Under the pieces are notes generated by a model. That model saw only the letters and a list, made by a program, of their open reading frames with translations, was not told where the DNA came from and searched no databases. A stretch of DNA of 64,000 nucleotides from Rugalucina vietnamica. Its lineage: Eukaryota; Mollusca; Bivalvia; Lucinida; Lucinidae. Below, in pieces: positions 13,646 through 64,000 of the stretch. A program made the translations under genes and the position numbers. Numbering within the stretch: the stretch's first letter is position 1; the number at the start of each line of letters is the position of its first letter. The stretch covers positions 28,802,956 to 28,866,955 of the forward strand of contig OZ024879.1 in assembly GCA_964017185.1 (NCBI GenBank). Direction: 5' to 3'.

Positions 13646-13793
13646 TGTAAAATCGCATTTAATTAAGTTGACGTCATTGTATTGTCGCTCTAAAATATTA
13701 CGATTTTAAAGGTCGATATCGCGAAAACAAGCTCGGAACGGCATCGATTTCTTTTTGATTTTCATATGTAGGACATCAAAATACATTCCCGTG

Positions 13794-25859: not shown

Positions 25860-26196
25860 TTTGTGTCATTGACCAAAACTACTTCTGCGCGCATTAATTT
25901 GAATATACGTACGCACCGTGGGAACAGCTGTTCGCACATCCACATTTGAAATTTACCTATGTATGTGGTAAATACTGAAAGTCTTTAAAGAAGAGTTATT
26001 CAAATGCAAATAATTAAAGAAATGGAAATTGGGTATATTTGGCTGGTTATAAGCGTCTGAAAATGCGTAAAAAGGGCAATCCTACTCTTAACGTGCTAGA
26101 ACGAATGAATGAATTGACAGGAGATTGAACGAACGAATGCATGAAATAACAGAAAAATGTACGAACAATTGAATATATGAACCAACAAGCAAATAA

Positions 26197-27116: not shown

Positions 27117-27572
27117 ACATATACCCCTTATACCCCACTTTTATATTGTAAAACTCATACTGGGGTGTGCAGGGGTATACCTATTTTTCTTATATTTGAT
27201 CCAAAACATAGATTGTGGGTAATTATAATATTAGATTCAACTGCCTCGCTGAGGGCTGTTTTAACATGTACCCACAATCAATGTTTTGTGCAAATAAATT
27301 AAACCTATCAAACTTTTTATCATGAATATTTCGATTTTTTACAGCTGGAGAAACCTCTGTATCCTGGTGTCATATGTTCTCGATAGCGTAAGAAAATCAT
27401 TGGCCAATGTTGATAATACTTTGAACTCTCTCCAATCATTCTCATTGTGCCGACAGATACTCTTTCTCTAAATGTTTAAGTGGCGATTCTATGCAGATCT
27501 CCATGCCGGGTGTTTACAGATCTGACCTTGACCTAAAGATGTTGATATATTGTATGGGCAAGTTTTCGTAAT
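27117..27572. mobile_element. MITE-B copy split by ~180 bp
   Basis: Left part (27117-27362) is a standard MITE-B to 'acctctgtat'. The expected end 'atattg.atgggcaagttttcgt' reappears only at 27546-27572. The 27363-27545 stretch between them is foreign to the family. The element ends 11 bases before the 5' UTR sequence of DENND3 exon 1. Confidence 0.65.
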
Positions 27573-27609: not shown

Positions 27610-27711
27610 ATGGTGTTGATTAGTCCTACTGTTGAGATGCCCAATGCCTTGGTGGACATTGTCCTTCTGGTGGGAATGGACGATAATACAGCACTTGTAC
27701 CACTAGAGAAG
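27610..27711 (+). CDS. DENND3: DENND3 exon 1 (start codon)
   Basis: 34 codons ending at AAG|GTATGG, phase 0. The ATG is preceded in frame by TAA at 27586. 'tttcag' at 27577-27582 could be an acceptor for a 5' UTR intron. The protein segment reads as the short N-terminal lead of DENND3. No promoter elements are convincing upstream. Confidence 0.7.
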
Positions 27712-30700
27712 GTATGGGACATGTACACACATTGTCACATGTACATCTTTTTAATGATATAAATTAAATTTACTGTGTTGCTTGTGTAAAATTATGGGAA
27801 GGCATGATAAAGAACTCAAGAGGTTCTAAATCTTATACATTTTCTAATGCCATCTTGCTTTACCTTGAAATAAAGAGCTAATAACTATCAAAATAGCCAT
27901 TGTAATTTGTACACATGCTTATTCTGCAAGAAATCGGAATTTAGCATCTCAACTGGAGCTTTATAGGTACTGTAAGGTGAATGAAAGTTTCACATTATCT
28001 TGCCAGTTATAAGGACTTAGTGAGGAACTGTGATTCTACAGTGTACCGTCAACCTGAGACATGGTGTGAAGAAAACTGACACAATGTCTGACACAAACAG
28101 CATGTACAGTCAGAGAATAAGGCTACAAGGTTGAAATTTGTGATTTAAGAAGAACATGGATCATACTATTCATAAGCGAAATCTTATCATTTATTAACTG
28201 GCATAAATGGCCAAATGCCTACTTTTCAAATAATGCTTCACTAGATATTGTCTGTCTTTTTTCCAGCCCAAAGATGACATCCTATCCAGTCTGTTCAGTA
28301 TTGAGTACGACCCACCAGTCTTGTCCACCATTACGTCAACCGAGATGGTCAACCTTTTCCCCTTCCCACACAGAGATGCAAAATATCCACCAACATTCGA
28401 AGATACACAAACACCCGATGTTCAAGATAGGGTTATATATCAACGAGAAAGACTAATGAGTGATCAGCTAATGGCGAAGTTTCAGACTTTTCCACTGAAG
28501 AGAAGCTATTCGGTGCATCCAAGGTTTCATGCGGGTCAGACATTGAGGTTGTCATCAGTGTCAACGAAGCCAGAGTTGCCGATATCTGAAGAGTTGCAGA
28601 GGTCCATTCCTTGGTTTTGCTTTCCAGGTAATTTTCTGTCTAACTGCTTGGAAGCATTACACTGCATAGAAAATATGAGCCACCTCGTGGTAAAACCAAC
28701 AATGTGGTTTCCGAACAGGTCCGACATAAACCGAGCTGCACAAGCACAGAAGCAGGCTAGAAGCTTGAAATTTCGGATTTAAGAAGAAGAGGAAGTGTAC
28801 TATCCGTGTAGCGAAAACAAAGGTGCTGATCAGCTTCGCGGTTACCGCGAAGCTGATCTGCGTCTTTGTTTTCGCATATGCAGATTGTTGGTTTTCCCAT
28901 GGGGCGGCTCATATGGTTAAGCCAAGCCATCCATTACACTGCATAGAAAAAGACACCCATACTTATAGGTCATAGGCTTATAGCTGTTCTTATGCTATTT
29001 CTAGTATATTGCAGGGCATTGGATTGTCATTAAGCTGAGTGTTAGGTGGAAGTCTCTCCCCCCTCCCCACTGCCCCCACCTCAAGAAAAAAAAGATACCG
29101 ACATGGACAGAATTGTTTATTGGAATGTTAGAATACAAAACAAACAAATAAAATGTACTTCTTTACTAACAGTGAAGTATCAAGCCTATAGCCATTTTTA
29201 TGGCTTAAACATAGGTCAATAAAGCATAAAAAAGGCACATAAAACTGATGGTTAACTACCCTTTGTTGTTAGGTGGCTGGCCATACTTGCTGTTTCAAAC
29301 ATGCAAACACTATGTGATCATATGATATGACAAAAAGGTAAAAGTAAGCAATGATTAAGAAATAGCTCAATCAAAATAAAAGTCCCGCTCCGGGGTGGGA
29401 AAAATAAATTGATAATCAGGTACTTATATACAGAGAACATAAATTGTAAGCTGAGTGAGAAACTATTATCTTAGCCGCAATGCGAGAAAACCGGTCTTCG
29501 GGATTTCCGACCAGGTCTGACACAAACCGACCCATGCAGCTACAGGAGATGGCTTGAAAGTTCGGATTTAGGAAGAAGAGAAATTGAACTTTCCATATAG
29601 CAAAAACAAAGGCGCTGATCAGCTTCGCAGTTACTGAGAAGCCGATCTGCCCCTTTGTTTTCGCATAGGCAAAATTCCGTTTTTCTCATGATGCGGCTCA
29701 TCTAATAGGTGGTCACTCATTTACCCTGACTTAAATAAATATATGAGAACGTATATGAGAGGTGCAAACAGCACAGAAATTCAACACCAAAACATAAAAA
29801 AATTAGGACCACAACAGAAGTATCGTCTTGGAATGGTCCGTAATATAAAATTACTTGGGGGGCATAAACTGGTTTTTCAGAGCCCTTAACTCGCCCATAA
29901 GTCTATTAAGACAAATTATTTAGACCTGATATTTCATTGCAGATGGAGCACGTGTGTACAAGGAAAAGCCTGAGACGTCAACCCACTTTCTGATCCTCAC
30001 TGACATGAATGCCCGCACAACATACGCCACCTGCTTAACATTCTACAGAACTTATATTGTTGAAAAGGTATGGATGGGGTGTAACTGAATGAGCTAGCAA
30101 TTTTGGCTAAGTTGGAAATGAACACACAGAGTGTCCATATTTGTTTTTGTATATTTTAATATGATCAAGGCAATTTGTATATGTACCTGGCCTGTCAAAA
30201 CATCAGACCAGCGCCATTGGCGAGCTATCAGCCCTTGTGTTACATTTTTAGTGATTTTAAAAGTTGTTAGTGACAAATGTATATTAGATGATTAGTGTCT
30301 GCAGAAGCAAATTAAATAATATTTATTTTGTATTTTAGGACAACCAAGTTTAGGCAATGTGTGTATGAACCTTGCTTGTCAAAACCGTAGAGAACTTGAG
30401 TGACGACCTATCAGTCTTACAGTGTTACATTTCCATTGGTTTCAAAAGTAAATGTATGTTAGTGATACATGTTTATTAGATGATAACTATTTGCTGACAC
30501 CAATAAGATTATGTTTCTGTGTGTTAAAGGATGATCAAGGCAATGTGTATATGAACCTGGCATGTCAAAACAATAGAGAAATTGACGACCTATCAGCCAT
30601 ACAGTGTTACGTTCCACAGTGTTGCATCATGATTTCAAAATATCCCTACTTCACGAGAGTTAAAGAATGTCTATCTAGGTAATAACAATGATACTTATCT

Positions 30701-33700
30701 ATATTTTCACTTTGAAAACATACCCATGCAATATACATAGATTTTTGAAGCTGTAAAAATTGAAAATTTCATTGGAAAATATATTTGATGTTTTTCTTAT
30801 TTTTGCTCAAAACATACAAGGTCTGTCCCGGGAAATCATAAAGATGTATGATATTTCGTGAACGGTTTGTTGTAATTTAAAGTTATGTTCATGCTTTTAA
30901 GCTACATTTGTTCTGAGCAATCTGTGAAAATATTAGTTCAATCGCTTACAAATTACAAAAGTTATGGAGATTTATATGATGGTGTATCGGCGTTTACGGA
31001 GCACGTTGAAAATCATTTTGCTACGTTTTTGTGGAGGGGTGGTTGAATGTTTTGTGTGCAGTCTCTTTATTAGAACCGTAATGGTGATGAATATTGTCAT
31101 CTAAGCATTGATTAGGTCTTCTTAGTTAAAATTATAGTCAATAATTTGAGTTATAAATGATAAGTAGAAAAAAAAGCATGATCAGTTTCATTTTATATGA
31201 GGGAACACTAATTTTATTTTAGACTGAAATAAAACAAACAGATGTCGCTTGTTTAAAATGACAACAAGAAACGAGCATTTAGAATATTTAAAGAAAAATG
31301 CATACAGAATCATCACAGGATTATTAATGACACAATAGAAGGCTGATTTTATAAAATAATTTCGTTAAATAAACTTAACTGGAAAGAAAAGCTTGGGGAA
31401 GGTCTAATTTTGCGCCGCAAAACTTACATTACGTCACTATTTTCGAATTAAATAATTGCAGTAGGTTTAAGAAAATTTCTATAAAATCAACGCTGATGGT
31501 GGAAATTATTTCAAACTTTCAAAAACTTATCTTACATAATTACTTGTGCAACTGATAGTTAAAATTGTGTAATATCACCTCAACTCGCAATTACAGGAAC
31601 TGTTGAATTTGATCTTGATGAATTTCAAAACAGTGTTTTTGACGTGCGCCGTAGACACCTACCCCTCTTGGAATAAATGCATATAAGTCTGTTGTGTAAC
31701 GGGTGAATCCATCCATATTTGTACGAAATGTTTATTAGATGTATGCAAACAGATCATATAAATTTCATGAAATTCTGCAGACACATTTCTGTTTTATCAC
31801 AAATGTCTACGTATTTCTGGGACAGACCCCGTAGATTGTGGCATTTCAAGCCTTCTTTGATGTGCTTTGCTAATTGCTTCCTGTTGTAACTAAGGTAACA
31901 GTAGAACAAAGGTTAACGCAGCTAGTATAAAGTTATTTGCTTTATGCATTTGTAAGGTGACAATGTTACTTCATGTCAATACTTCAAGTTACTTCATACA
32001 TGCCAAAGTCCTTATTCATAATGCAAATGACTAAATGTCTTCTTTTTTTTTTTTAATTCCAAACATAGATTGTGGGTACTCCTTAGAACCGCCTCGGCAA
32101 GGCAGTTAATTCTAACGTTTACACACAATCAATGTTTTGAGGAAAAATATTAAAATTAAATATCAATATTTTTCCTATGAAATTTTCAACTTTTATAATT
32201 GAAAAAAAATCTCTGTATATTGCATGGGCATGTTTTCGTAATGTTTATATGTACATTTTCAATATTTCAGAATGTTGATGTACATAGAGGGCGACCCTGA
32301 GGAGATGTCAACATTCCTGAAAGAGTTTGCTCATATCCTCACACATACTCCAGTACCCCCGGCTGGCACCATCTCTGTGGTAGGTCTTTCATTATGTACT
32401 GTCACAATGGTTTGTTATACATACATGTAGTTATCAGGATTTCTTGTGTTCACTCCATGTGTTATAGGGCCTATAGATGTCTACATTCCTGAAAGAGTTT
32501 GCTCATATCCTCACACATACTCCAGTACCCCCGGCTGGCACCATCTCTGTGGTAGGTCTTTCATTATGTACTGTCACAATGGTTTGTTATACATACATGT
32601 AGTTATCAGGATTTCTTGTGTTCACTCCGTGTGTTATAGGGCCTATGGATGTCAACATTCCTGAAAGAATTTGCTCATATCCTCACACATACACCAGTAC
32701 CACCAGCTGGCATGATCTCTGTGGTAGGTCTTTCATTTTGTAGACCCGTTGGATTTGCATGAAAAAATATCATTACGAAAAAAATAATTTTTGACAAAAT
32801 GACAGCTATGATAACTTAGACAGTTTTTCTTGATTAGTTTTGCAGGTATGTGCATTCAGAGGCCAATCAGCTCCTAGCACAGTTTTTAATAGAACAATTC
32901 AATATTTTGCCTGTATAATAAAGACACATTGGACATTAACATGAAGAATATTTTTAGCTCGCCTGCACGAAGTGCATAGAGCTATTGTAATCACTTCGAT
33001 TGTCCCCGTTTACGTTTACGTGTACGTCTGCGTCACACTTTCTGTTAAAGTTTTTTATAAGTCTATATCTCTTGACCATGTTGATGGATCATGTTGATAC
33101 TTTGCATATTGCTAGATATTGGTCTGAAGTTTTACGCAGTACCATCATGACCCACCCTGGGTGACCATGAGGTCAAGGTCACAGACTTAGAAATTTTGTG
33201 TTTAAGTTTTTGGTTAAAGTTTTTTTTAAGTCTATATCTCTTGACCATATTGATGGATTGAGTGGATACTTTGCTTGTTGCTAGATATTGGTCTGAAGTT
33301 TTATGCAGTACCATCATGACCCACCCTGGGTGACCTTGAGGTCAAGGTCACGGACTTAGAAATTTTGTGTTTAAGTTTTTGGTTAAAGAGTTTGTAAGTC
33401 TATATCTCTTGACCATATTGATGGATTGAGTGGATACTTTGCATGTTGCTAGATATTGGTCTGAAGTTTTATGCAGTACCATCATGTACTGTTTTGTGTT
33501 TAAGTTTTGGTTAATGCTTTTATAAGTCTATATCTCTTGAACATGTAGATTGATCAAGTTGATACTTTGCATTGGAATTTGGTCTGAAGTTTTATGTTGT
33601 ACCATCATGACCCACCTGAGTGACCTTGAGGTCAAGGTCATGGGTCATAGATTTTAACAGATGTAGTGGCAAAGCACAAGTCAGGCGAGCTAGGCTGTCC

Positions 33701-36700
33701 TGTGACAGCTCTTATTTTAGAAAAGAATAATGTTGGACAAAAATGACAGCTCTGTGGGTTGAAGCCAAATTTAACAGTTACACTACTTTAGAATCTAAGA
33801 AGCATTGCTTATTGACTCTTTTTTTTCGTTCATCCAAAGAAGAGCCTCTCTTCAATTTAACATTTTTTTTTCAGGAATTCAATCTCTACCAAATGCCAGT
33901 AACCTTGATACCACCTGACCATCCTGACAAACCAGTCATAGATGTGCCATTACACCTAGTCTTTCTGTGTTTTCCAATTGAAGAGCTCCTCAAGCTACTC
34001 TCCTGTGTCCTATTGGAGGAGAGAATAGTCTTCCTGTCCTCAAATTATGCTCTCCTTGCAATTATTGCTGAGGTAGGTACTTCAATATGAGCCACATTGT
34101 GAGAAAACCAGATATTTTCCTATGCGAAAACAAAGGCGCAGATCAGCTTCGCAGTAACTGTGAAGCTGATCAGCGCCTTTGTTTTCGCTACACGGATAGT
34201 ACAATTCCTCTACTTTCTAAATCTAAAATTTCCAGTCTCTAGTCATCTTCTGTGCTTCGGAAACCCTGAAGACCAGTTTACTCGCGTCATGGCTCATATG
34301 AATATCAAATAAATTTGGAAATGTTAGATAGCTTGGAATTTCTAAGTTCTCACTAATAGGCCTTGCCATATACTCACGAGTGGAAGCCATGACATGCTAC
34401 TTGTTGGTATGAGTTCTAAATCGCCCCTCGTCGCGCAACGTGTTGCTGCAAGTTATGTTGGAAAAGTTAGAAGCTGCCACACACAAACTCTAGTGCTACT
34501 TGTAGCAATCTGATTTCTGTGGAGCTGTGTGAAAATAAACAATGATAATTGTGGTAATACAGTTCAACCTCATTATATATATATAGTTTTCAATATAACG
34601 TGGACATGTTGTGACTCCCAAAATGATTATTTTGAAATATGTGTATTGTTAATAACCTCGCTATAACAAGGTTTCACTTATAGCATCGTCTGTTTCCATG
34701 AACCCCAACAATCGCATCATGATAAGGTTTGCCTGTATTTCTAATTTTTCAGAGTATCCGTAACTTCATCCTACCATTCAAGTCTCGCTACACCTACTCT
34801 CCGATATTACCGTCAGGCAAAATAGACCTCCTTCAGTCGATTGGAATATTCATGTTTGGTTGTCATTCCAAACATAGACAGGAAGCTGAACAGGTAGACT
34901 TTTCTTTCACAGTTTAGGCTTAAAAATAGTTGTTTGTATCTGGTTACCTGTTTGTGTCTAATTTGTGTCTAATTGTTTTACCCCTGACCCTAACTTCTTT
35001 GGGTAATTTTAGGGGATTCATTTAAATTGTGAATTGTCATTAATTTGCACATATTGATGTTTAAATAAGTTTGAGAACATTATCTAAGAAAATACTTTGC
35101 CGTATTGTTAGAAAGACTGCTCTTTACATATATGAAAACAAATATGAGATCAGCTTTGCAGTAAATGCAAATGCTGTTGCAAAGTATATTTGAGCTGCAT
35201 CATGAGAAAAACAGACTTTTTGCATATGCAAAAACAAAGTCCCAGATCACCTTTCACCGTAACTGTGAAGCTGATCAGCGTCTTTGTTTTTTGCTACATA
35301 GATAGTACAATTCCTCTACTTTCTAAATCCAAAATTACCAGTCTCTAGCCATCTTCTGTGTTTGTACAGCTTGGTTTGTGTCGGACCTGTTCGAAAACCA
35401 CATTGTTGGTTTTCTCCTTACGCGGCTTGTATCATTCCTGTAGGTTGAAGGTTTGGTGTTGGTGGACATCGACAGAGGGACTGTATCTATAAACTCGGAC
35501 CCAGAAAGAGACGGCAATAACATTGTAATACCTGGTCTTCCTACGCAAGCTGCTAGTGTTTTTAAGGAAAAATGTTCGAAGATGAAACTGCAGATTGAAT
35601 TGGAACAGACACAGAGGTAATTATAATTGAGCCTTTGCATGAGAAACAATTTCGGTTTCAGACCAGGTCTGACACAAACCAGCTTATACAGTCACAGAAG
35701 CAGGCTAGAAACTTGAAATTTCAGATTTAAGAAGAAGAGGGATTGTACTGTCCATGAAGTGAATACAAAGGCGCTGATCTGTTGTGCAGTTACTGCACCG
35801 CTGATCTGCCATTTTGTTTTTGCCTATGCATGTTGTTGGTTTTTTATGTGGCAGCTCATTTAACATTAAAGGTAATTTCATGTTAATTTTATCAGTGTCC
35901 CACAATTGTAAAATGACATTCAAATGACATGGTTTCGACTGAATGGAAAAAAGAAAATAATAGATATTTTTATAATAGCCAGCCTCTCCATGCAAGCTGC
36001 CAGTGTCTATAAGAAAAAAAAATCAAAGATGAAACTATATATTGATTGTTTTTTCCCCATATACAGGTCTGGATCATCTCGAAAAATGGCGATCAAAATT
36101 ATTGTGCGGATTGGTGACAATATTTCACCTTAGCAAAGGGAATCACTCCAAAAGACTGTTTCTAACTATAGGATGAAACTAATTGGGACTAAAGAATGAA
36201 ACAAATCGGAAATGGGTGATCACACAATTATCCGATATCCGTTACATGAGGTGTGGGTTTCGTTCACAATCGGAAAAAGTCAAACGGAATCTTCAAAAAA
36301 GAGGCTACCTGATAGCAGTCATGTTACTTTTTTGTCGTGCAGAACCACAACAAAATTGTTGCATTTCTATTATGATATGTAACCCCATGTACCACTGGTC
36401 AATACATGAAGTTGTTGCTCATCTGCGTGATAATTTTGATTGCGATTTTCCAAGATGATCAAGACCTGATATAACTGAAAAATTATTGACCGTTCTTTAT
36501 TTTTGCAGGCCATTCTGTTACAACATGGAGAGACTAAGAGAGCAGCAGTCTGAGTTTATACAGAAACAAAATGAGGTCATCTCACACACATGTCTGGAGT
36601 TGATGGTCAATATGTTCAGGTATGAGCCGCGCCGTGAGGAAACCGGTCTTGGGGTCTCCGACCAGGTCCGACACAAACTAGCCTGAACAGTCATAGAATA

Positions 36701-60700: not shown

Positions 60701-63700
60701 ATGGATAAGAATGCCAGCACAGAGGCAAAAATGCAAAGAGCCATGGATCAAGTCTCACAGTCATGTGATAACTATGATCTCACAATCAGCACAAAAAAGA
60801 CAGGGGTTGTACACCAACCAGCGCCCGGAAAGCCATATAATGAACCAACCATCACTGTGAATGGGCAAAAACTGAAAGTTGTTGACAAGTTCACCTACCT
60901 GGGAAGCACTCTCTCCAGAGCAGTGCATATTGATGATGAGATCACTGCCAGAATTGCAAAGGCTAGTGTGGCATTCGGACGACTCCGTGCAAATGTCTGG
61001 GAGCGAAATGGAATCAAGCTTGACACCAAGCTGAAAGTCTACAAGGCTGTGGTACTGCCAACCCTCTTGTATGCATGTGAGACCTGGACAGTATACCAAC
61101 GCCATGCAAAGAGACTTAACCATTTCCACTTAAGCTGTTTGAGAAAGTTGTTAAAAATCAAGTGGCAGGACAAGATTCCAGACACAGAGGTCCTGACGAA
61201 AGCAGGGATGCAAAGCATGCATACAGTCTTAAAGCTAGCACAGCTAAGATGGACTGGCCATGTTATAAGAATGCCTGATGCGCGACTTCCAAAGAAAGTT
61301 TTCTATGGAGAACTACAGGAGGGAAAGCGCTCTCAAGGTGGCCAGAAGAAACGCTACAAAGACACCCTCAAAGCCTCTCTGAAGGATTTCGAAATACCAA
61401 TGGGGTCCTGGGAACAGACTGCACAGGAGCGATCAAAGTGGCGAGGTCTCATCAACAAAGGAGCAGCTCTTTATGAAAAGAAGAGAATCTGTGAAGCTGA
61501 AAGAAAGCGAAGAGAGCGCAAAGCCAAAACAAATGTGCCACCATCAGACTCTATGACATTGACTTGCTCTACTTGCAACCGACAGTTTAGAGCCTGAGAA
61601 TTGGCCTAGTCAGCCATCAAAGAACTCACCAACACACATCAGCACTATTCAAGAAATAATGATGGTCTTTCTCATTAGTGAGAGACAACTATCAATGTTT
61701 ATACATCAGCTGCGACGCAAGAAAACCGGTCTTCGGGGTTTCCGACCAGGTCTGACCCAAACCGGCCTATACTCCCATACAAGAAAGCTAGAATGTTCAA
61801 TTTTTGGGTATAAGTAGAGCAGGAATTTTACTATCCATGTAGCGAAAACAAAGGCGCTGATCAACTTAGCAGTCAATGTGAAGCTGATCTTCATCTTTGT
61901 TTTTGCATAGGCAAAAATCCGGTTTTCTCATGACGCGGCTCATATCTTTTAGATGGACAATAAATCTCTTGTCTTCTTGTTCTGTACTATCAAGTCTTGA
62001 CATGCATTTGGGAGAATACAGGTTATGATATTGATCAGGCTAATACTCTAACTAGCTGTTGGTTACAAATGAAATGATGTGATAAAATTACTGGTTAACT
62101 GCTCGATACAATGTTGGGAACAAATAATGTGAAATGGATAAAGGACCAGCCTGACATGACCACAGCTTTTTACCACAAACAGTTTACAAAAAATAAATTT
62201 TATTAAGACACATAAACACTTTTTTGTAATGACTGTAAAACATCTGGGGCCAGTTGTTCAAAATAAACGATGTCATTAGTTAAAGATTCTTTAAAATTTC
62301 AAACATGAATATTACAAATACACTGTTATTTTTTGTTGATAAAACGTGAGAATCCTTTGCAATTGTCTAGCCTTCTTCTGTGACTGTAATGGCAAGTTTG
62401 TGTCAGACAAGGTCAGGATCATAGAAGACTGGTTTGCTTGTGAAATAGCAAACCACGTCAAACTTCAATTTTGAAACTTGATTTAAGGATTATGCCGACA
62501 ACATGGGAAATAACTCTTGTTGGGAGCTATGCATCGCCAGCTTCGTATTTTGAAAATGGAGGATTTATGTAAAACAAATTTACTAAATAATTGTCAAAAT
62601 AGCGTCTGTACAATTTGATGAAGTTTTTGAATAGGAATGACGCCAATGACGTCACAATAAAGGCGACGTAATGTTGCATTTAGATCTATTTGGTGCAACG
62701 TTTTTTGGCGCCATGACTTTGAAATTTGCGACACTGGGCTGATTAAACTGCACGTCTAATTTTACAAGCAAGCAGTATGTTCTCAACTTTAACTGAATAT
62801 CAACTTAGAAATATTGCGCTACACATTTAGGTTAAACATTTTTGTCTACAATCTACAGTGCAATTTAAACTCGTACAAAAATCTCTAAAATCGTAAGCAG
62901 AATCAAAGGGGGTGGGGTAACTTAGTTGTCTGTAGTATTTTTTTCTTTTCGTTGACCACATGATTTTTTCTCACCAAATTACTTGTTATTAGATGGTCTT
63001 GCAATGAAAACTTTATCGCGGAAATTTATCGGCGAGTTTTGGAATAATATTAGAATTGCTACGTTAACAAGGATGAAAACAAAATAGCCATAAAAGCACA
63101 CATTTACAAAATATCTCTTCCTGATAACACTTTAAGGAAAAACGCACACTTGATGATGGTTATATACACACAACAACGTCTAGTCTTGATGAAATGTATG
63201 GTATTTGGATAGTACTGATTGTACTTTTCGAATTTTTTATTGCCAAAATGTAGTAGCAACTAGCGAAAAAGGCTTTTTTCGGCACACGAAATGGGCGTTC
63301 TTTCAACTGGTATCCTGGTGAACCCCTAATTTTATATGTCCAGTGCAAAGTTAACATATTAAAGTATCTTCAGAATAAAAGTAAGAAAAATTTATCGAGC
63401 CGTTTAAAATCACCTTTGCGATTGGCATCATCCTTAATTTGATTTTTGCAGTGGGCAGAAAGAAAATGCTCCACACCATGACCAGATTGAGACCTGGGCA
63501 GATAAACTGGCCTTCTACACACAAGCAAAAGAGGCGGGGGAAAAAAATCATTTGAAAAATTTTGATATTTTTTCAAAACATACATTGTGGGTACATGTTA
63601 AAACCGCCTTGCCAAGGCTGTTCTAACGAGTACCCAAAATCTATTGTCTGGACTAAAACTAACAATTTTGCTCAAAAGATAGAATGTGGATACTCATTAG

Positions 63701-64000
63701 AACCACCTTGCATAGATTGTGGGTATATGTTAGAACTGCCTTGCCGAGGCGGTTCTAATGAGTACCCAGAATCTATATTTGGGAACAAAAATAGGTATAC
63801 CCATGTAAACCCAAGTTTTACAATAAACAAGTGGGTTATGAGAGGGTATGCATTGCATGAACATGTTAGCATGATGTTTATTTTGCAGTGGGCAGCAGGA
63901 AGATGCCCCACACCACGATCAGATTGAGACCTGGGCAGATAAACTGGCCTTCTACACACAAGCAAAAGAGGCGGGAAAACATATACTGCCCAAGGATACA
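27610..64000 (+). CDS. DENND3: DENN domain-containing protein 3 (Rab12 GEF), exons 1-19, partial
   Basis: Nineteen exons join in phase with GT/AG ends and give about 940 codons, continuing past the window. In order: start segment 'NALVDIVLLVGMDD' (1-34); uDENN with 'IPWFCFP|DGARVY' and 'THFLILTDMNARTTYA' (about 145-245); cDENN with 'VPLHLVFLCFPIEELLKLLS', 'EERIVFLSS' and 'LPSGKIDLLQSIGIFMFG' (about 280-430); dDENN with 'LELMVNMFR' and 'FKTDMFKKFLEER' (about 455-565); a linker; and the PHenn region with 'GRIGLTDKRLFFL' and 'RNWWYRVITEMWAG' (about 750-906). Known of the family: DENND3 activates Rab12 by nucleotide exchange in endosomal and autophagic traffic, and a WD40 propeller follows PHenn. 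Start choice: in-frame TAA 24 bases upstream of the ATG. Another DENN paralogue is less likely given the PHenn-like segment. Intron 18 is 15.7 kb. Confidence 0.88.
27712..28266. other. DENND3 intron 1
   Basis: No recognisable repeat or gene; ends in 'tttttccag'. Confidence 0.6.
28267..28627 (+). CDS. DENND3: DENND3 exon 2
   Basis: 361 bp, acceptor 'ttttttccag', donor CCAG|GTAATT, phase 0 in, phase 1 out. Ends in 'SIPWFCFP', the start of the uDENN core; the split Asp codon is completed by exon 3. Confidence 0.9.
28675..28913. mobile_element. MITE-A copy (intron 2)
   Basis: Ends 'atgagccacctcgtgg' and 'ccatggggcggctcat', with the central palindrome 'ctgatcagcttcgcgg' / 'ccgcgaagctgatc'. An 18-bp copy of the left flank ('attacactgcatagaaaa') recurs 35 bases past its right end. 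Confidence 0.88.
28914..29471. other. DENND3 intron 2 interior
   Basis: Contains a diverged intronic repeat (29333-29440, around 'atcaggtacttata') that recurs at 43277-43385. Otherwise nothing recognised. Confidence 0.6.
29472..29702. mobile_element. MITE-A copy (intron 2)
   Basis: Starts 'agccgcaatgcgagaaaacc', ends 'tttctcatgatgcggctcat', with the family palindrome in the middle ('gctgatcagcttcgcag'). Confidence 0.88.
29943..30067 (+). CDS. DENND3: DENND3 exon 3
   Basis: 125 bp, acceptor 'attgcag', donor AAG|GTATGG. Encodes 'GARVYKEKPETSTHFLILTD', the central uDENN strands. Confidence 0.92.
30160..30265 (+). pseudogene. Decayed copy 1 of DENND3 exon 4
   Basis: 'atgatcaaggcaattt' through 'ctatcagcccttgtgttac' aligns to exon 4 with substitutions and indels; no open frame. 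Confidence 0.8.
30339..30450 (+). pseudogene. Decayed copy 2 of DENND3 exon 4
   Basis: Keeps a 'tattttag' acceptor before GAC AAC CAA, then aligns to exon 4 ('gtatgaaccttgcttgtcaa') until indels give an in-frame TGA near the aligned 'LS' codons. Confidence 0.85.
30530..30678 (+). CDS. DENND3: DENND3 exon 4
   Basis: 149 bp, acceptor 'tgttaaag', donor AG|GTAATA, phase 2 out. Encodes 'LSAIQCYVPQCCIMISKYPY', the end of uDENN entering cDENN. Confidence 0.92.
30713..30816. mobile_element. MITE-B left half, interrupted
   Basis: 'aacatacccatgcaatatac' to 'ttgctcaaaacata', where a ~1-kb element enters at a TA. The family sequence resumes only briefly ('gattgtgg') at 31834. Confidence 0.75.
30817..31831. 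mobile_element. TA-flanked ~1.0-kb DNA transposon, non-autonomous
   Basis: Left end 'caaggtctgtcccgggaaat', right end 'atttctgggacagaccccg', imperfect inverted repeats of ~19 bp, flanked by TA on both sides. TA target duplication and terminal form fit Tc1/mariner. No transposase frame. The target was a MITE-B ('aacata' + 'gattgtgg'). Confidence 0.8.
32041..32253. mobile_element. MITE-B copy ending 17 bases before exon 5
   Basis: 'aaacatagattgtgggtact' stem with the partner near 32124-32143, ending 'tgcatgggcatgttttcg'. The exon 5 polypyrimidine tract follows at once. Confidence 0.85.
32271..32379 (+). CDS. DENND3: DENND3 exon 5
   Basis: 109 bp, acceptor 'aatatttcag', donor GTG|GTAGGT, phase 0 out. 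Encodes 'GDPEEMSTFLKEFAHILTHT'. Its last 75 bp are present twice more downstream. Confidence 0.9.
32477..32551 (+). pseudogene. Tandem copy 2 of exon 5 (3' 75 bp), possible cassette exon
   Basis: Nearly identical to the last 25 codons of exon 5 (one synonymous change, TCA to TCT). It is preceded by 'gggcctatag' (possible acceptor) and followed by GTAGGT. Phase 0 on both sides, so inclusion would add 25 residues without frame loss. ~173-bp tandem unit. Confidence 0.75.
32649..32723 (+). pseudogene. Tandem copy 3 of exon 5 (3' 75 bp), possible cassette exon
   Basis: Open through all 25 codons. Relative to exon 5 I count four synonymous codon changes and one replacement (Thr to Met). An upstream AG at 32638-32639 would add three in-frame codons; donor GTAGGT kept. 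Confidence 0.75.
32955..33713. mobile_element. Repeat family E copy (inverted-end element with ~170-bp internal tandem units)
   Basis: Opens 'tagctcgcctgcacgaag', closes 'gtcaggcgagctaggctg' then 'gacagctctta'. The interior has three to four diverged repeats built on 'ctatatctcttgacca', 'ttggtctgaagtttta' and 'gaggtcaaggtca'. A sister lies at 40091-40842. This wording of repeat is common in bivalve genomes as I recall. Confidence 0.8.
33875..34072 (+). CDS. DENND3: DENND3 exon 6
   Basis: 198 bp, acceptor 'tttttttcag', donor GAG|GTAGGT, phase 0/0. Core of cDENN: 'LVFLCFPIEELLKLLSCVLL' and 'EERIVFLSSNYALLAIIAE'. Confidence 0.95.
34087..34299. mobile_element. MITE-A copy (intron 6)
   Basis: 'tgagccacattgtgagaaaa' against 'ctcgcgtcatggctcat', with a central palindrome 'cagatcagcttcgcag' / 'ctgtgaagctgatc'. 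It begins 15 bases after exon 6. Confidence 0.9.
34563..34726. mobile_element. Diverged MITE-C-like copy
   Basis: Starts 'caacctcattatata', holds 'aataacctcgctataac'; resembles the MITE-C family but its right end is unclear. Confidence 0.45.
34753..34893 (+). CDS. DENND3: DENND3 exon 7
   Basis: 141 bp, acceptor 'atttttcag', donor CAG|GTAGAC, phase 0/0. cDENN: 'FILPFKSRYTYSPILPSGKI' then 'GIFMFGCHS'. Confidence 0.94.
35189..35430. mobile_element. MITE-A copy just upstream of exon 8
   Basis: 'tgagctgcatcatgagaaaa' to 'tctccttacgcggctt'; its right end is 13 bases from exon 8, so the MITE abuts the exon's polypyrimidine tract. Confidence 0.88.
35444..35616 (+). CDS. DENND3: DENND3 exon 8
   Basis: 173 bp, acceptor 'cctgtag', donor AG|GTAATT, phase 2 out. 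Encodes 'EGLVLVDIDRGTVSI' and 'PGLPTQAASVFKEK', the cDENN-dDENN junction. Confidence 0.93.
35627..35860. mobile_element. MITE-A copy just downstream of exon 8
   Basis: 'tgagcctttgcatgagaaac' to 'tttttatgtggcagctcat'. With the copy at 35189-35430, exon 8 is bracketed by two MITE-A elements within 13 bases on each side. Confidence 0.85.
35975..36047 (+). pseudogene. Partial copy of DENND3 exon 8
   Basis: Aligns to the exon 8 stretch 'GLPTQAASVFKEKCSKMKL' (here SLSMQAASVYKKKKSKMKL), open for ~24 codons with both silent and replacement changes; no donor kept at the aligned place. Confidence 0.85.
36048..36508. other. DENND3 intron 8 remainder
   Basis: No recognisable repeat or gene; ends in 'atttttgcag'. 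Confidence 0.5.
36509..36619 (+). CDS. DENND3: DENND3 exon 9
   Basis: 111 bp, acceptor 'tttttgcag', donor AG|GTATGA, phase 2 out. Encodes 'NMERLREQQSEFIQKQNEVI' and 'LELMVNMFR', the start of dDENN. The donor sits at the very edge of a MITE-A. Confidence 0.92.
36622..36854. mobile_element. MITE-A copy starting at the exon 9 donor
   Basis: 'atgagccgcgccgtgaggaa' begins two bases after the exon (TTCAG|GT+ATGAGCC), so the element supplies intron positions +3 onward. Right end 'tttgtcatgacgcggca'. Confidence 0.85.
36866..37580. repeat. Foldback repeat region in intron 9
   Basis: A near-perfect ~105-bp palindrome at 36985-37093 (arms 'gatagacaaatctgtcccga', centre 'gaggctcgccgag'), preceded by a diverged half copy from 36886. 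The following 'ctttttcttgcatgcc' to 'gaacacttgaacgcaggg' stretch recurs in diverged form at 37419-37582. Confidence 0.8.
37624..38370. mobile_element. 747-bp inverted-repeat element with ATTCC target duplication
   Basis: Ends 'cagtgatgtagataat' and 'attatctacatcgctg' are inverted with one mismatch. ATTCC flanks both sides (37619-37623, 38371-38375). Sub-terminal 'gcgtactgtacgc' and 'gcagtacgcatc' add to the inverted structure. No transposase frame; family not assigned. Confidence 0.85.
38422..38518 (+). CDS. DENND3: DENND3 exon 10
   Basis: 97 bp, acceptor 'tatttcag', donor GGG|GTAAGT, phase 0 out. dDENN: 'GVVFDMRAELKHFNKDAFL'. Confidence 0.92.
38549..38780. mobile_element. MITE-B copy (intron 10)
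   Basis: 'cattacgaaaacaggtgatt' to 'ggacatgttttcctgatg', with a shortened central stem 'ttagaaccgtggttctaa'. Confidence 0.85.
39108..39295. mobile_element. MITE-C, best-preserved copy
   Basis: 188 bp with inverted ends 'caacctctttataacac' and 'gttataaagaggttg'. Used here as reference for the interrupted copy in intron 18. Confidence 0.85.
39441..39562 (+). CDS. DENND3: DENND3 exon 11
   Basis: 122 bp, acceptor 'tgtttaccag', donor AG|GTGATT, phase 2 out. dDENN end: 'VFKTDMFKKFLEERMSD' and 'YWSDLEMKTRRDIDSYTL'. Confidence 0.93.
39563..40090. other. DENND3 intron 11, 5' part
   Basis: AT-rich intron with no recognised element before the family E repeat. Confidence 0.5.
40091..40842. mobile_element. 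Repeat family E copy (intron 11)
   Basis: 'tagctcgcctgtatgaaagt' to 'gtcaggcgagctacgctg' and 'gacagctctt'; three or more internal units with 'ttggtctgaagtttta'. Starts with a GTCGGC minisatellite at 40139-40171. Same layout as 32955-33713. Confidence 0.82.
40935..41076 (+). CDS. DENND3: DENND3 exon 12
   Basis: 142 bp, acceptor 'tttcaccag', donor AAG|GTAGGT, phase 0 out. Linker after DENN: 'CRLPDITNLDRYVNSSISML'. Confidence 0.9.
41088..41188 (+). pseudogene. Tandem partial copy of DENND3 exon 12
   Basis: ~109-bp offset copy of the exon's 3' part plus its donor region ('aaaagggaagtaacaac' to 'caaatcaagg'). The aligned Cys codon is a TGA stop, so it cannot be a translated cassette in that frame. 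Confidence 0.88.
41611..41747 (+). CDS. DENND3: DENND3 exon 13
   Basis: 137 bp, acceptor 'ttattttcag', donor GA|GTAGGT, phase 2 out. Linker: 'TSFVYLRCLFYVASGNKLAA'. Confidence 0.9.
42190..42428. mobile_element. MITE-A copy (intron 13)
   Basis: 'tgagccaccacatgggaaaa' with the family palindrome 'gatcagcttcgcagtaactg', ending 'ttttgtcatgcgatggttca'. Ends 43 bases before exon 14. Confidence 0.85.
42472..42644 (+). CDS. DENND3: DENND3 exon 14
   Basis: 173 bp, acceptor 'atattttctag', donor A|GTAAGT, phase 1 out. Acidic-basic helical linker: 'SPEELVIFKKKIGHEKLLEI', 'AEEADLKVQKIRMDPVKIP'. Confidence 0.92.
42695..42924. mobile_element. MITE-B copy fused to an exon 14 copy
   Basis: 'aacatgccaatgcaatatag' to 'ggcatgttatcctg'. 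Its last bases run directly into exon 14-like sequence at 42925. Confidence 0.82.
42925..42991 (+). pseudogene. Partial copy of DENND3 exon 14 (3' end)
   Basis: 22 open codons (EEADLKVLKIRMDPVEIPDR..) plus the donor A|GTAAGTTATA. I count about seven synonymous and two replacement codon differences from exon 14. It lacks the 5' part of the exon and any acceptor; a MITE-B end lies directly upstream. Confidence 0.88.
43031..43273. mobile_element. MITE-C copy (intron 14)
   Basis: 'caacctcattataacac' and 'gttataatgaggttg' ends. Confidence 0.75.
43277..43560. other. Intron 14 repeat shared with intron 2
   Basis: 43277-43385 aligns with 29333-29440 ('aaggtacaagtaggcaa', 'gatcaggaaa..gc.caatca', 'atcaggtacttata'). 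The rest is unassigned. Confidence 0.6.
43564..43690. mobile_element. Truncated MITE-A (left half)
   Basis: 'tgaactgcgacgcaggaaaa' through 'gcttgaaattttggaag'; the central palindrome and right half are absent. Confidence 0.75.
43813..43917 (+). CDS. DENND3: DENND3 exon 15
   Basis: 105 bp, acceptor 'gtgttttcag', donor TATC|GTAAGT, phase 1 out. Encodes 'EEFVELVSLMEMSNDYDTIS', just before PHenn. Confidence 0.9.
43918..44402. other. DENND3 intron 15
   Basis: A-rich start, then no recognised element. Confidence 0.5.
44403..44577 (+). CDS. DENND3: DENND3 exon 16
   Basis: 175 bp, acceptor 'atttctag', donor AG|GTTGGA, phase 2 out. PHenn: 'EQGILQLFVGRWNENQEQC' and 'GIGRIGLTDKR'. Confidence 0.9.
44934..45176. 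mobile_element. MITE-B copy (intron 16)
   Basis: 'cattacgaaaacttgcccat' to 'ggatatgctttcctgatg'. One arm of the central stem is deleted ('gttagaaccgcacaatc'). Confidence 0.85.
45370..45503 (+). CDS. DENND3: DENND3 exon 17
   Basis: 134 bp, acceptor 'attttgtag', donor AAAG|GTAGGC, phase 1 out. PHenn: 'LFFLKDVSNLYQEIVKLRDI' then 'HQAFLSQTTDTLLIHRK'. Two further partial copies lie downstream. Confidence 0.92.
45571..45812. mobile_element. MITE-A copy between exon 17 and its copy 2
   Basis: 'tgagcctcggcgcgaggaaa' to 'tctcacaatgcagctcat'. The copied exon starts 5 bases past its end. Confidence 0.85.
45818..45922 (+). pseudogene. Copy 2 of DENND3 exon 17 (3' 105 bp)
   Basis: Open for all 35 codons. 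Differences from exon 17: two Lys-to-Arg changes and four synonymous. Donor GTAGGC and ~40 bp of intron kept; no good acceptor upstream because the join is at the MITE-A end. Confidence 0.88.
46010..46165. mobile_element. Right half of a MITE-A
   Basis: From 'gggagcctttgttttcgc' to 'tctcacgtcgcggctcat', ending 5 bases before copy 3 of exon 17. Confidence 0.8.
46171..47295 (+). pseudogene. Copy 3 of DENND3 exon 17, split by a transposon
   Basis: 46171-46203 ('ttgtactaagagatag..') and 47236-47295 ('aatcacagcatcaggcct..') together match exon 17. The third codon is a TAA stop. The donor side is kept. A 1030-bp element separates the halves at a TA. Confidence 0.88.
46204..47233. mobile_element. 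TA-flanked 1030-bp Tc1/mariner-type element, non-autonomous
   Basis: Left end 'cgaagggtggcccagtaaat', right end 'atttaccgggccacccctcg': a 20-bp inverted repeat with two mismatches, flanked by TA on both sides. Intact neighbouring exon copies show the empty site. Only short unrelated frames inside, so no transposase. Confidence 0.85.
47336..47634. mobile_element. MITE-B copy (intron 17)
   Basis: 'catcaggaaaacatctctgt' to 'tgcatggtcaagttcccg'. Central stem 'gccttgcctgctgcgcggca' well kept. Confidence 0.85.
47635..48017. other. DENND3 intron 17, 3' end
   Basis: No recognised element; ends at the exon 18 acceptor. Confidence 0.5.
48018..48180 (+). CDS. DENND3: DENND3 exon 18
   Basis: 163 bp, acceptor 'gtttttccag', donor TCATG|GTAAGA, phase 2 out. 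End of PHenn: 'GKAFTVYLKEDRNWWYRVIT', 'EMWAGKLIAEATRDINAVSQ'. Some reading into the WD40 lead may follow in exon 19. Confidence 0.92.
48204..48346. mobile_element. MITE-C, left part (interrupted)
   Basis: Matches 39108-39250 from 'caacctttttataacac' to 'ctatccaaa'. The rest of this MITE is found 8.9 kb away at 57247-57288. Confidence 0.8.
49105..49338. mobile_element. MITE-A copy (in duplicated block 2)
   Basis: 'tgagccacatgagaaaaaca' to 'tctggtgtcatggctcat', sister of 15797-16027. Confidence 0.85.
50885..52225. repeat. ~455-bp tandem repeat, about 2.9 units
   Basis: Marker 'ccatatatgggcatgg' at 51174, 51628 and 52084 (spacing 454 and 456). Each unit holds 'gaccttgccgtaaaataggt'-type text. 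Confidence 0.9.
52326..53190. repeat. ~146-bp tandem repeat, six units
   Basis: Marker 'aaatataggtcaagg' recurs near 52326, 52472, 52618, 52764, 52911 and 53063. Each unit includes 'gggtatgtcaaggacaatta'. Confidence 0.92.
54091..54325 (-). mobile_element. SINE family 2 (minus), block copy 2
   Basis: Sister of 18318-18551 with the same T-run and 'cagctcatatgagacgg'. Confidence 0.7.
54420..54612 (+). mobile_element. SINE family 2 (plus), block copy 2
   Basis: Sister of 18640-18845 with 'gtgggttcaagcc'. Confidence 0.65.
55032..55145 (+). mobile_element. tRNA-like SINE head, block copy 2
   Basis: 'ggccctagtggccgagtggt' and an A-rich tail; sister of 19243-19345. Confidence 0.65.
55150..55384. 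mobile_element. MITE-B copy, block copy 2
   Basis: Sister of 19353-19578, with 'cctcaccgaagcggttcta' centre and 'catggatatgttttcctgat' end. The second MITE-B of block copy 1 (19989-20259) is missing here. Confidence 0.82.
55559..56167. mobile_element. GTCGC-rich element, copy 2
   Basis: 'tatctcactggaatgcgac' to 'cgcatgccagtgagata'; diverged sister of 20370-21003. Confidence 0.75.
57247..57288. mobile_element. MITE-C, right part (interrupted)
   Basis: 'gtgttgtaatgaaccatg' and 'ttataaagaggtg' complete the copy begun at 48204. Confidence 0.78.
57309..57474. mobile_element. MITE-C copy, inverted
   Basis: 'aacctctttataacacgctt' to 'gtgttataaaaaggtta'; matches the reverse complement of 39108-39295. 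Confidence 0.75.
57560..61690 (+). pseudogene. LINE retrotransposon with endonuclease and reverse transcriptase, inactivated
   Basis: A long GC-richer leader (to ~58490) is followed by ORF2 in pieces. Apurinic-type endonuclease: 'ALSETRFADVGE', 'ILLGDFNARVG' near 58900-58929, 'TDHRLV' near 59191-59208. Reverse transcriptase: 'GISLLSIAGKILAKILLNRL', 'FVDLTKAFDTV', 'VKQGCVLAP', catalytic 'LLYADD' ending at 60700. A C-terminal C2H2-like finger ('CSTCNRQFRA', His codons near 61615 and 61627) is broken by a one-base shift at TGA 61595-61597. Frame changes near 58775, 59990 and 60320 and an in-frame TAA at 59311-59313 prevent full translation. It is not the same family as the LINE at 23160-25859: motifs and strand differ. 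It lies in DENND3 intron 18 in the sense direction. The left boundary is uncertain. Confidence 0.88.
61704..61945. mobile_element. MITE-A copy (intron 18)
   Basis: 'cagctgcgacgcaagaaaac' to 'tctcatgacgcggctcat', one of the least diverged copies. Confidence 0.9.
61946..63451. other. DENND3 intron 18, 3' part
   Basis: Mostly unassigned. A MITE-A scrap ('tcttctgtgactgtaatgg') lies at about 62370-62445. 'ggggccagttgttcaaa' at 62268-62284 resembles a dispersed repeat I recall from invertebrates. No exon seen. Confidence 0.5.
63452..63541 (+). pseudogene. Upstream copy of DENND3 exon 19 (5' part)
   Basis: Keeps the acceptor 'gatttttgcag' and ~30 codons in frame. It differs from exon 19 by two replacements near the start (Gln/Lys, Asp/Asn) and three silent changes, then is identical until it meets a MITE-B at ~63541. 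No donor is kept. Confidence 0.88.
63542..63880. mobile_element. MITE-B, compound copy
   Basis: Two overlapping stems, 'cattgtgggtacatgtta' and 'gattgtgggtatatgtta', each paired with a 'gagtaccca' arm, then 'ggtatgcattgcatgaacat'. It separates the two copies of exon 19. Confidence 0.8.
63899..64000 (+). CDS. DENND3: DENND3 exon 19 (runs off the window)
   Basis: Acceptor 'tttattttgcag'; the first base completes the Cys codon begun in exon 18. Open to the edge: 'HDQIETWADKLAFYTQAKEA' then 'GKHILPKDT'. Preferred over the copy at 63452 because it continues past the point where that copy is truncated. No donor in view. Confidence 0.82.

What the first reader, a model, noticed from the sequence alone, without database searches (positions are those of the whole stretch)
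27610..64000. Seven of 19 DENND3 exons carry adjacent partial copies
I see ten extra exon pieces next to their sources: exon 4 (two), 5 (two), 8, 12, 14, 17 (two) and 19. This is far more than expected by chance in one gene and suggests a recurrent local process, such as template switching or MITE-mediated tandem duplication, acting on exon-intron junctions. Some copies are clearly dead (TGA in the exon 12 copy, TAA in exon 17 copy 3, indels in the exon 4 copies); others stay open. Alternatives are alleles of a very polymorphic genome wrongly joined in assembly, or the same process acting on introns generally with exons as bystanders.
Basis: partly seen in the sequence, partly recalled or inferred. 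Interest (0 to 1): 0.85.

Follow-up and report, generated by a model that had tools for sequence, protein, structure and literature searches.

The report
Broken exon copies beside inserted elements
In a clam-like animal, seven of the 19 DENND3 exons in this window carry nearby, mostly broken copies, several sitting across a small jumping element; they look like repeated small repair mistakes at exon edges rather than working alternative exons.

Summary
A 19-exon, 943-codon open DENND3 model fits 27610-64000. All ten reported copies are found; the exon 4 copies are decayed near full-length units, not partial. Exon 20, just outside, has two more, so 8 of about 25 exons.

Copies are about 74-99% identical to their sources; most start or end inside the exon, and four of ten have stops or frame-breaking indels. 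In exons 14, 17 and 19 the doubled host piece lies on both sides of a MITE; exon 8 is looser. Six of 26 MITEs in the window have flanking host repeats, null near 1%. Elsewhere in this 1.09-Gb assembly 3 of 86 do. MITEs crowd exon edges: 12 of 22 within 80 bp, about 10% expected; 6 of 18 downstream.

Best reading: independent small duplications from mis-repaired staggered breaks at exon edges, often with an element inserted; a known kind of event at unusual density. Assembly error is unlikely. Function is not supported, though four open copies show unexplained synonymous bias. The rate in other genes could not be measured.

The parts
27610..64000 (+). DENND3 gene, exons 1-19 of about 25: 27610-27711, 28267-28627, 29943-30067, 30530-30678, 32271-32379, 33875-34072, 34753-34893, 35444-35616, 36509-36619, 38422-38518, 39441-39562, 40935-41076, 41611-41747, 42472-42644, 43813-43917, 44403-44577, 45370-45503, 48018-48180, 63889-64000+
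   Evidence: AG/GT path search with an open 943-codon frame, best-scoring of 128 open paths; Pfam DENN, uDENN and TPR_DENND3 above cut-off, dDENN just below its cut-off; 76% identity to P0001, 720 of 933 aligned residues
30137..30529 (+). two decayed near full-length copies of exon 4 (about 30154-30291 and 30338-30490), tandem unit about 184 bp; no M1 or M2 between
32475..32742 (+). two 5'-truncated copies of exon 5 with donor (32475-32551 and 32648-32723), separated by a 77-bp filler
   Evidence: filler has no dispersed relative in the sample searched
35970..36045 (+). internal partial copy of exon 8, no usable donor, frame open
35628..35863 (+). MITE family M1, 11 bp after exon 8, between exon 8 and its copy (106 bp before the copy)
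41087..41186 (+). 5'-truncated copy of exon 12, 108-bp period, 8-bp spacer, in-frame TGA
42686..42918. MITE family M2 between exon 14 and its partial copy (right border set by hand; 42916)
42923..43001 (+). 5'-truncated copy of exon 14 with donor; starts 4-6 bp after the MITE
45574..45812 (+). full-length MITE M1 between exon 17 and copy B (3-bp and 1-bp gaps)
45814..45996 (+). 5'-truncated copy B of exon 17 with donor and about 70 bp of intron, open frame
46010..46163 (-). remnant of MITE M1 in the other orientation, between copies B and C
   Evidence: sequence read
46167..47326 (+). copy C of exon 17 (46167-46208 and 47235-47326), TAA stop, split by an inserted element at 46209-47228 with terminal inverted repeats (read by eye)
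   Evidence: inserted element has no relative in the sample searched
63444..63538 (+). 3'-truncated upstream copy of exon 19 with acceptor, no donor
63545..63876. MITE family M2 (left part lost, with an internal duplication) between the truncated copy and the intact exon 19; borders set by hand (63535-63885)
28655..28950 (.). intronic case: M1 at 28674-28914 flanked by a 19/19-bp host repeat (28655-28673 and 28932-28950)

Best explanation
The copies are scars of several independent small duplications at exon edges. A break with its two nicks about 45-185 bp apart (inferred) was filled in on both sides and rejoined, doubling the piece between the nicks. Often an element, MITE M1 or M2 or another short insert, ended up in the join, giving host piece - element - host piece. 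A duplication that spans an exon edge leaves one intact exon, so it is tolerated, and the second piece decays. MITEs concentrate at exon edges in this gene, which may put breaks there. Shown: anatomy, abutting junctions, differing identities, MITE crowding at exon edges, the same arrangement at a few other places in the genome. Inferred: the staggered break, the fill-in, and whether the element caused the break or filled it.
For: All ten copies are local and direct, 74% to 99% identical to their sources. Host repeats flank 6 of 26 MITEs in the window at score 38 or more; 600 random positions give 0.8% at 40 or more and 1.5% at 34 or more. Gaps to the MITE are 3 and 1 bp for exon 17, 0 and 4 for exon 19, 31 and 4 for exon 14 (some MITE borders were set by hand, but, with automatic borders, repeats exon 17 and gives 31 and 6 for exon 14). 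Outside the window 3 of 86 MITEs have a host repeat within 40 bp on both sides (0 of 19, 1 of 21, 2 of 24, 0 of 22); null 23 of 6000, of which 13 lie in one array and 4 at the window's own MITEs. At L002 an M2-type element with both inverted-repeat ends sits with no gap between 44-bp repeats with one difference. MITEs lie within 80 bp of an exon edge in 12 of 22 cases (expected 10%, P 2e-7) and, in the downstream half, 6 of 18 (expected 6.6%, P 8e-4). No copy has two good splice sites with a matching open frame. Staggered-break duplication is an established mechanism (PMC8355091, abstract and introduction read); local repair-mediated duplications with a mean of 162 bp are known in human (PMC2671141, abstract, passages and section 7 read).
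Against: None of 22 MITEs in 20 further M2 loci has a long flanking repeat, and 0 of 19 in the rest of DENND3 and upstream, so elements usually insert without one. Exons 4, 5 and 12 have no M1 or M2 in the join. Purely intronic cases should outnumber exon-spanning ones but do not (one 19-bp intronic MITE case in the window, perhaps L022 elsewhere); the exon bias is not fully explained. The four open copies tested (exon 5 copy 3, exon 14, exon 17 B, exon 19) have 8 non-synonymous of 29 changes where a copy dead from birth predicts 17-19. For exon 17 the MITE is 16.9% from its family consensus while the two host pieces differ at 23 of 183 columns, gaps included; one shared birth date would predict more difference between the pieces, unless family substructure inflates the MITE figure.
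Confidence: 0.57

Rival explanations
1. The MITE itself causes the duplication by aberrant transposition: its two ends join two different places, on sister or homologous chromatids, so the stretch between them is doubled.
For: Junctions fall at or within a few bases of the element's ends in exons 17 and 19 and at L002; in L002, by eye, one end sits in a run of TA and the other joins about 46 bp upstream. Transposition-mediated re-replication in maize is reported (PMC4270019, search listing only).
Against: Exons 4, 5 and 12 show the same sort of copy without M1 or M2; none of 22 MITEs in 20 further M2 loci has it.
Confidence: 0.15
2. Ordinary background: this genome makes many small local duplications everywhere and those on exons are simply the ones that stay recognisable, because one copy is conserved.
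For: Random 200 kb holds 12 small local duplications besides 7 larger arrays (hand count from the listing); counting satellites, 7 of 19 is not unusual (P 0.07). Exon 4 and 8 copies (about 74%) would be hard to see in intron.
Against: Without the satellite block random intron intervals give a mean of 1.0 and 0 of 2000 trials reach 7. Exon 5, 14, 17 and 19 copies (86-99%) would be detectable anywhere.
Confidence: 0.17
3. Tandem exon duplications that are or were functional alternative exons, later truncated by MITE insertion or deletion.
For: Open copies have too few non-synonymous changes (8 of 29, expected 17-19, 0 of 1500 simulations as low at each of three kappa values). L029 holds two exon-like copies, open with AG and GT at their ends, on both sides of a MITE, with 5 synonymous and 1 non-synonymous differences (read by eye).
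Against: Four of the ten copies have stops or frame-breaking indels (exon 4 twice, exon 12, exon 17 C). Exon 5 copies and exon 17 B have a moderate acceptor and a good donor, but by hand the exon 5 readings meet TAG and the exon 17 B reading is out of frame. P0001 aligns with only 2 and 8 extra residues, so it carries no such copy. The L029 gene is unidentified and its aligned piece of 111 bp, which includes intron, is open in no frame.
Confidence: 0.08
4. Assembly artefact: two alleles of a very polymorphic genome placed in series.
For: Synonymous-biased differences are what alleles would show.
Against: The four open copies differ at 6-9 positions in 66-108 bp, synonymous change near 0.2-0.4 per site by hand estimate, too high for alleles; stops, indels, a 1-kb transposon inside copy C; mid-exon junctions with no overlap; three copies in series for exons 4, 5 and 17; assembly of 47 contigs in which the other 85 of 86 matches to the exon 19 stretch lie in its MITE part (only the best 40 of 7416 candidates scored).
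Confidence: 0.03

Closest known systems
Repair-mediated duplications by capture of proximal DNA (Pace et al. 2009, PMC2671141)
   Same: Local (under 5 kb), short (their proximal mean 162 bp, maximum 619 bp), include exons and splice sites, filler at many breakpoints
   Different: Theirs were found inside interrupted TEs and cases within 50 bp of each other were removed; their Table 2 lists 4 partial-exon and 4 full-exon donors among 824; here 7 of 19 exons of one gene are hit and a MITE lies in several joins
Small tandem duplications from staggered breaks (Schimmel et al. 2021, PMC8355091)
   Same: Direct tandem doubling of a short stretch; exon 12 (108-bp period, 8-bp spacer) fits directly
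   Different: Most cases here have 77 bp to several hundred bp of other DNA between the copies; enzymes untested
Tandem direct duplications by alternative transposition in maize (PMC4270019, listing only)
   Same: Duplication tied to a DNA transposon
   Different: Here stretches are only 19-183 bp and the elements are small and non-coding; nothing about the transposase is known; sizes in maize not looked up
Tandem exon duplications and mutually exclusive exons (PMC9013439 and PMC9741552, listings only)
   Same: Exon sequence repeated next to itself
   Different: Copies here are mostly truncated inside the exon, or dead

Membership tests
Repair-mediated duplication (Pace 2009) | Donor and copy within 5 kb | tested here: met
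   Start-to-start distances 108-1792 bp
Repair-mediated duplication (Pace 2009) | Copy at least 50 bp; their proximal maximum 619 bp | tested here: met
   76-183 bp aligned per copy, the split exon 17 copy in pieces of 41 and 82 bp; the 19-bp intronic case at 28655 would not qualify
Repair-mediated duplication (Pace 2009) | More than 50 bp between donor and copy | tested here: inconclusive
   Met for exons 5, 8, 14, 17 and 19; not met for exon 12 (8-bp spacer); exon 4 not cleanly measurable
Repair-mediated duplication (Pace 2009) | Microhomology, deletion or filler at breakpoints checked against an empty orthologous site | not testable with these tools
   No related genome sequence could be fetched
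Target-site duplication of a MITE family | Short duplication of fixed length at nearly every copy | tested here: not met
   Repeat lengths 19-183 bp; none in 22 of 22 MITEs from 20 further M2 loci
Mutually exclusive or cassette exon | Acceptor and donor, matching phase, open frame | tested here: not met
   Scores, frames, phases by hand; nearest is exon 5 copy 3, whose open-frame acceptor scores 2.9, below the lowest real one of 3.5
Mutually exclusive or cassette exon | Spliced RNA | not testable with these tools
   No RNA reads
Haplotype join in assembly | Single molecules lack the copies, half depth | not testable with these tools
   No reads

The most novel reading that the evidence does not exclude
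In this bivalve, MITEs land preferentially at exon-intron edges, and breaks made there repeatedly double short stretches that span the edge. The intact copy saves the gene, and the spare, sometimes complete and open as at L029, is raw material for new alternative exons and for intron growth, so the element steers where exon duplication happens genome-wide.
Probability: 0.25. Interest if true: 0.65.

Novelty: new variant of a known kind. Interest (0 to 1): 0.45.

Why it matters
Small repair duplications are known, but exon pieces are a tiny share of them in human (4 partial-exon and 4 full-exon donors among 824 in PMC2671141). Eight of about 25 exons in one gene, with MITEs in several joins and MITEs crowded at exon edges, would make a natural test bed for how breaks, mobile elements and selection together shape exon duplication. 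It also warns annotators that decayed exon copies next to real exons may occur in such genomes and can corrupt gene models.

Tried and rejected
A fixed long target-site duplication for the MITEs was considered and rejected: none of 22 MITEs from 20 further M2 loci has it. Those loci were taken from the best M2 matches, so they lean to copies like the window's. A first flank null on random loci was useless because satellites gave 14-29% hits; one search's null (592 of 6000) likewise; one search removed arrays. The first synonymous/non-synonymous simulation had exon 17 B in a wrong frame; one search replaces it. Gene conversion between copies was considered for the synonymous bias and set aside by reasoning only. 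MITE divergence against copy divergence was not decisive.

Rows dropped or set by hand. One search found 28 MITE stretches; one search used 26 (fragments 28081-28181 and 27546-27572 dropped, several borders trimmed by hand). One search used 22 inside the gene (46010 left out, one split in two). In one search the exon 19 MITE was missed because the automatic border was too wide; it is counted. One-sided cases L006 and L019 are not in 3 of 86. In one search two composite matches were dropped and the exon 5 and 12 stretches re-added by hand. With the stricter filter the window shows 6 local duplication blocks, 5 of them exonic (exons 4, 5, 14, 17, 19); exons 8 and 12 do not pass it. A coding reading of the L002 and L006 repeats is by eye and weak (L006 has codon-breaking gaps; L002 one non-synonymous difference in 15 codons); L022 has no convincing frame. 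Locus L001 (3601 bp, overlapping the window) and the viral, plasmid and phage collections were not used.

Full report
What is there. The stretch 27610-64000 holds exons 1-19 of a DENND3 gene. A search for AG/GT exon borders with an open frame gives 19 exons and 943 codons. Pfam finds DENN, uDENN and TPR_DENND3 domains above their cut-offs and dDENN just below its cut-off. The best protein relative, P0001, an unnamed protein, is 76% identical over 99% of the query; the next, Mercenaria mercenaria, is 49%. By my count 31 of the 44 hits are named as molluscs, and the best named ones are bivalves, so the genome is probably a bivalve; no species name came from any call. The window is C11:28802956-28866955 of an assembly of 1.09 Gb in 47 contigs.

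The copies. Blastn of each exon with 60 bp of flank finds all ten reported copies, and alignments show their borders. Exon 4 has two upstream, near full-length, decayed copies in a tandem of about 184 bp. Exon 5 has two 5'-truncated copies with donor, separated by a 77-bp filler. Exon 8 has an internal copy. Exon 12 has a direct 108-bp tandem with TGA. Exon 14 and exon 17 have 5'-truncated copies with donor; the third exon 17 copy has TAA and is split by a 1.02-kb element with terminal inverted repeats (seen by eye). Exon 19 has an upstream 3'-truncated copy. Beyond the window, exon 20 has two upstream copies; one abuts a 187-bp foldback sequence. Six further exons were located with P0001, and exons 21-25 showed no local copy, so 8 of about 25 exons.

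More than chance? In one search, 7 of 19 exons share at least 40 bp with a local direct copy. Nineteen random intron intervals of the same sizes, 2000 trials, give a mean of 3.8 and P(7 or more) 0.07 when the satellite block at 50.8-53.3 kb is kept; a mean of 1.0 and 0 trials at 7 or more when it is left out; a mean of 1.8, P(6 or more) 0.0065 and P(7 or more) 0.0015 in introns 1-17 alone. The conserved source exon also makes old copies easier to see. I take the excess as real but not overwhelming; it is one gene, chosen because it looked odd.

The MITE link. Two MITE families were delimited, M1 (237-bp consensus) and M2 (243-bp consensus without its outer ends), from 31 copies each. Of 26 copies tested in the window, six have a direct host repeat on their two sides scoring 38 or more: exon 8, exon 14, exon 17 A-B, exon 17 B-C, exon 19 and one intronic 19-bp case; 600 random positions reach 40 in 0.8% and 34 in 1.5%. 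The exon 17 B-C case is probably a second step of the same array, so independent events are five. Gaps between repeat and element are 3 and 1 bp in exon 17, 0 and 4 in exon 19 (hand-set borders), 31 and 4 in exon 14, 25 and 106 in exon 8. Elsewhere, with both ends within 40 bp: 0 of 19 MITEs in the rest of DENND3 and 10 kb upstream, 1 of 21 in seven M2-centred loci, 2 of 24 in twenty random 10-kb loci, 0 of 22 in twenty more M2 loci, together 3 of 86. The null is 23 of 6000, of which 13 are in one array and 4 at the window's MITEs. By hand calculation 3 of 86 against 23/6000 gives P about 0.005.

Two cases stand out. At L002 an M2-type element with both inverted-repeat ends lies with no gap between 44-bp repeats that differ at one base (46 of 47). 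L029 has M1 between two exon-like copies, open, with AG before and GT after; read by eye they differ by five synonymous and one non-synonymous change. The gene there is unidentified, and over the whole aligned piece, which includes intron, no frame is open.

MITEs at exon edges. In DENND3, 12 of 22 MITEs lie within 80 bp of an exon edge where 10% are expected (P 2e-7); without the last large intron 11 of 17 against 19% (P 5e-5). The downstream half, with exon borders from tblastn only, repeats it: 6 of 18 against 6.6% (P 8e-4). Counts include MITEs that are part of the duplications themselves.

Are the copies alive? Exons 8 and 12 copies have 21 non-synonymous of 38 changes, as a dead copy predicts (22-24). 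The four open copies have 8 of 29, where 17-19 are predicted, and none of 1500 simulations was as low at any of three kappa values. Yet with splice models made from the gene's own 18 introns no copy has two good sites with a matching open frame: exon 5 copies and exon 17 B come nearest, but by hand the first meet TAG or have a very weak acceptor, and the second is out of frame. So function is not supported for the window copies, and the synonymous bias is left unexplained; allelic divergence before duplication or a period of use are the candidates.

Artefact? Stops, indels, three copies in series, identity from 74% to 99%, mid-exon junctions without overlap and a transposon inside one copy speak against joined alleles. 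In one search the exon 19 stretch matched itself; the other 85 matches lie between query positions 156 and 489, the M2 part, though only the best 40 of 7416 candidates were scored. Reads would decide.

Mechanism. Shown: local direct duplications of differing identity at exon edges, several with a MITE in the join, and MITE crowding at those edges. Inferred: staggered breaks filled in and rejoined, as in PMC8355091 (abstract, introduction read) and PMC2671141 (abstract, passages, section 7 read), with selection keeping those that leave one exon whole. Whether the MITE made the break or filled it is open; for exon 17 the MITE looks rather older than the duplication (16.9% from consensus; host pieces 160 of 183 columns identical), which is not decisive. 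Listings of papers on MITE-linked or partial exon duplication and on bivalve MITEs (12 of 391 shown; 29: 6 of 6; 48: 12 of 218; 99: 6 of 693; titles and abstract starts only) showed none that describes this arrangement; the library lacks most subscription journals.

L002 had been written as 44 of 44 identical; the score means one difference. Confidence in the best explanation was lowered by 0.01 for this and for the MITE age in exon 17.

Not done. The base rate in other genes was the main missing test; the genome search for DENN-domain genes did not complete.

Noticed in passing
L009/L010, window-frame positions 64470-64534 and 65185-65306: Exon 20 of DENND3 also has two upstream copies, one ending at a 187-bp foldback sequence, the other with a stop (by eye).
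   Followed up: partly
L029:500-1000 (C15:19786486 onward): Two exon-like open copies with AG and GT at their ends lie on both sides of an M1 MITE; differences 5 synonymous, 1 non-synonymous by eye. Possible functional alternative exons in an unidentified gene.
   Followed up: partly
36619-36624: The M1 copy after exon 9 starts one base past the exon, so the MITE supplies part of the splice donor.
   Followed up: no
1-13650: Large satellite with about 185/370-bp units, with an orientation switch near 2930.
   Followed up: no
33030-33700 and 40090-40840: Two copies of a related element with an internal tandem repeat of about 165-170 bp.
   Followed up: no
50856-53194: Adjacent arrays with 456-bp and 146-bp units in the last large intron of the window.
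   Followed up: no
23160-25865 (-) and 58588-61597 (+): Long ORFs (one of 901 codons, one in pieces over several frames) that look like non-LTR retrotransposon proteins; label recalled, not searched.
   Followed up: no
45395-45503 versus 45814-45922: Copy B of exon 17 reads DIRR where the source reads DIKK; P0001 and Mya have DIR, so the source may be the one that changed.
   Followed up: partly
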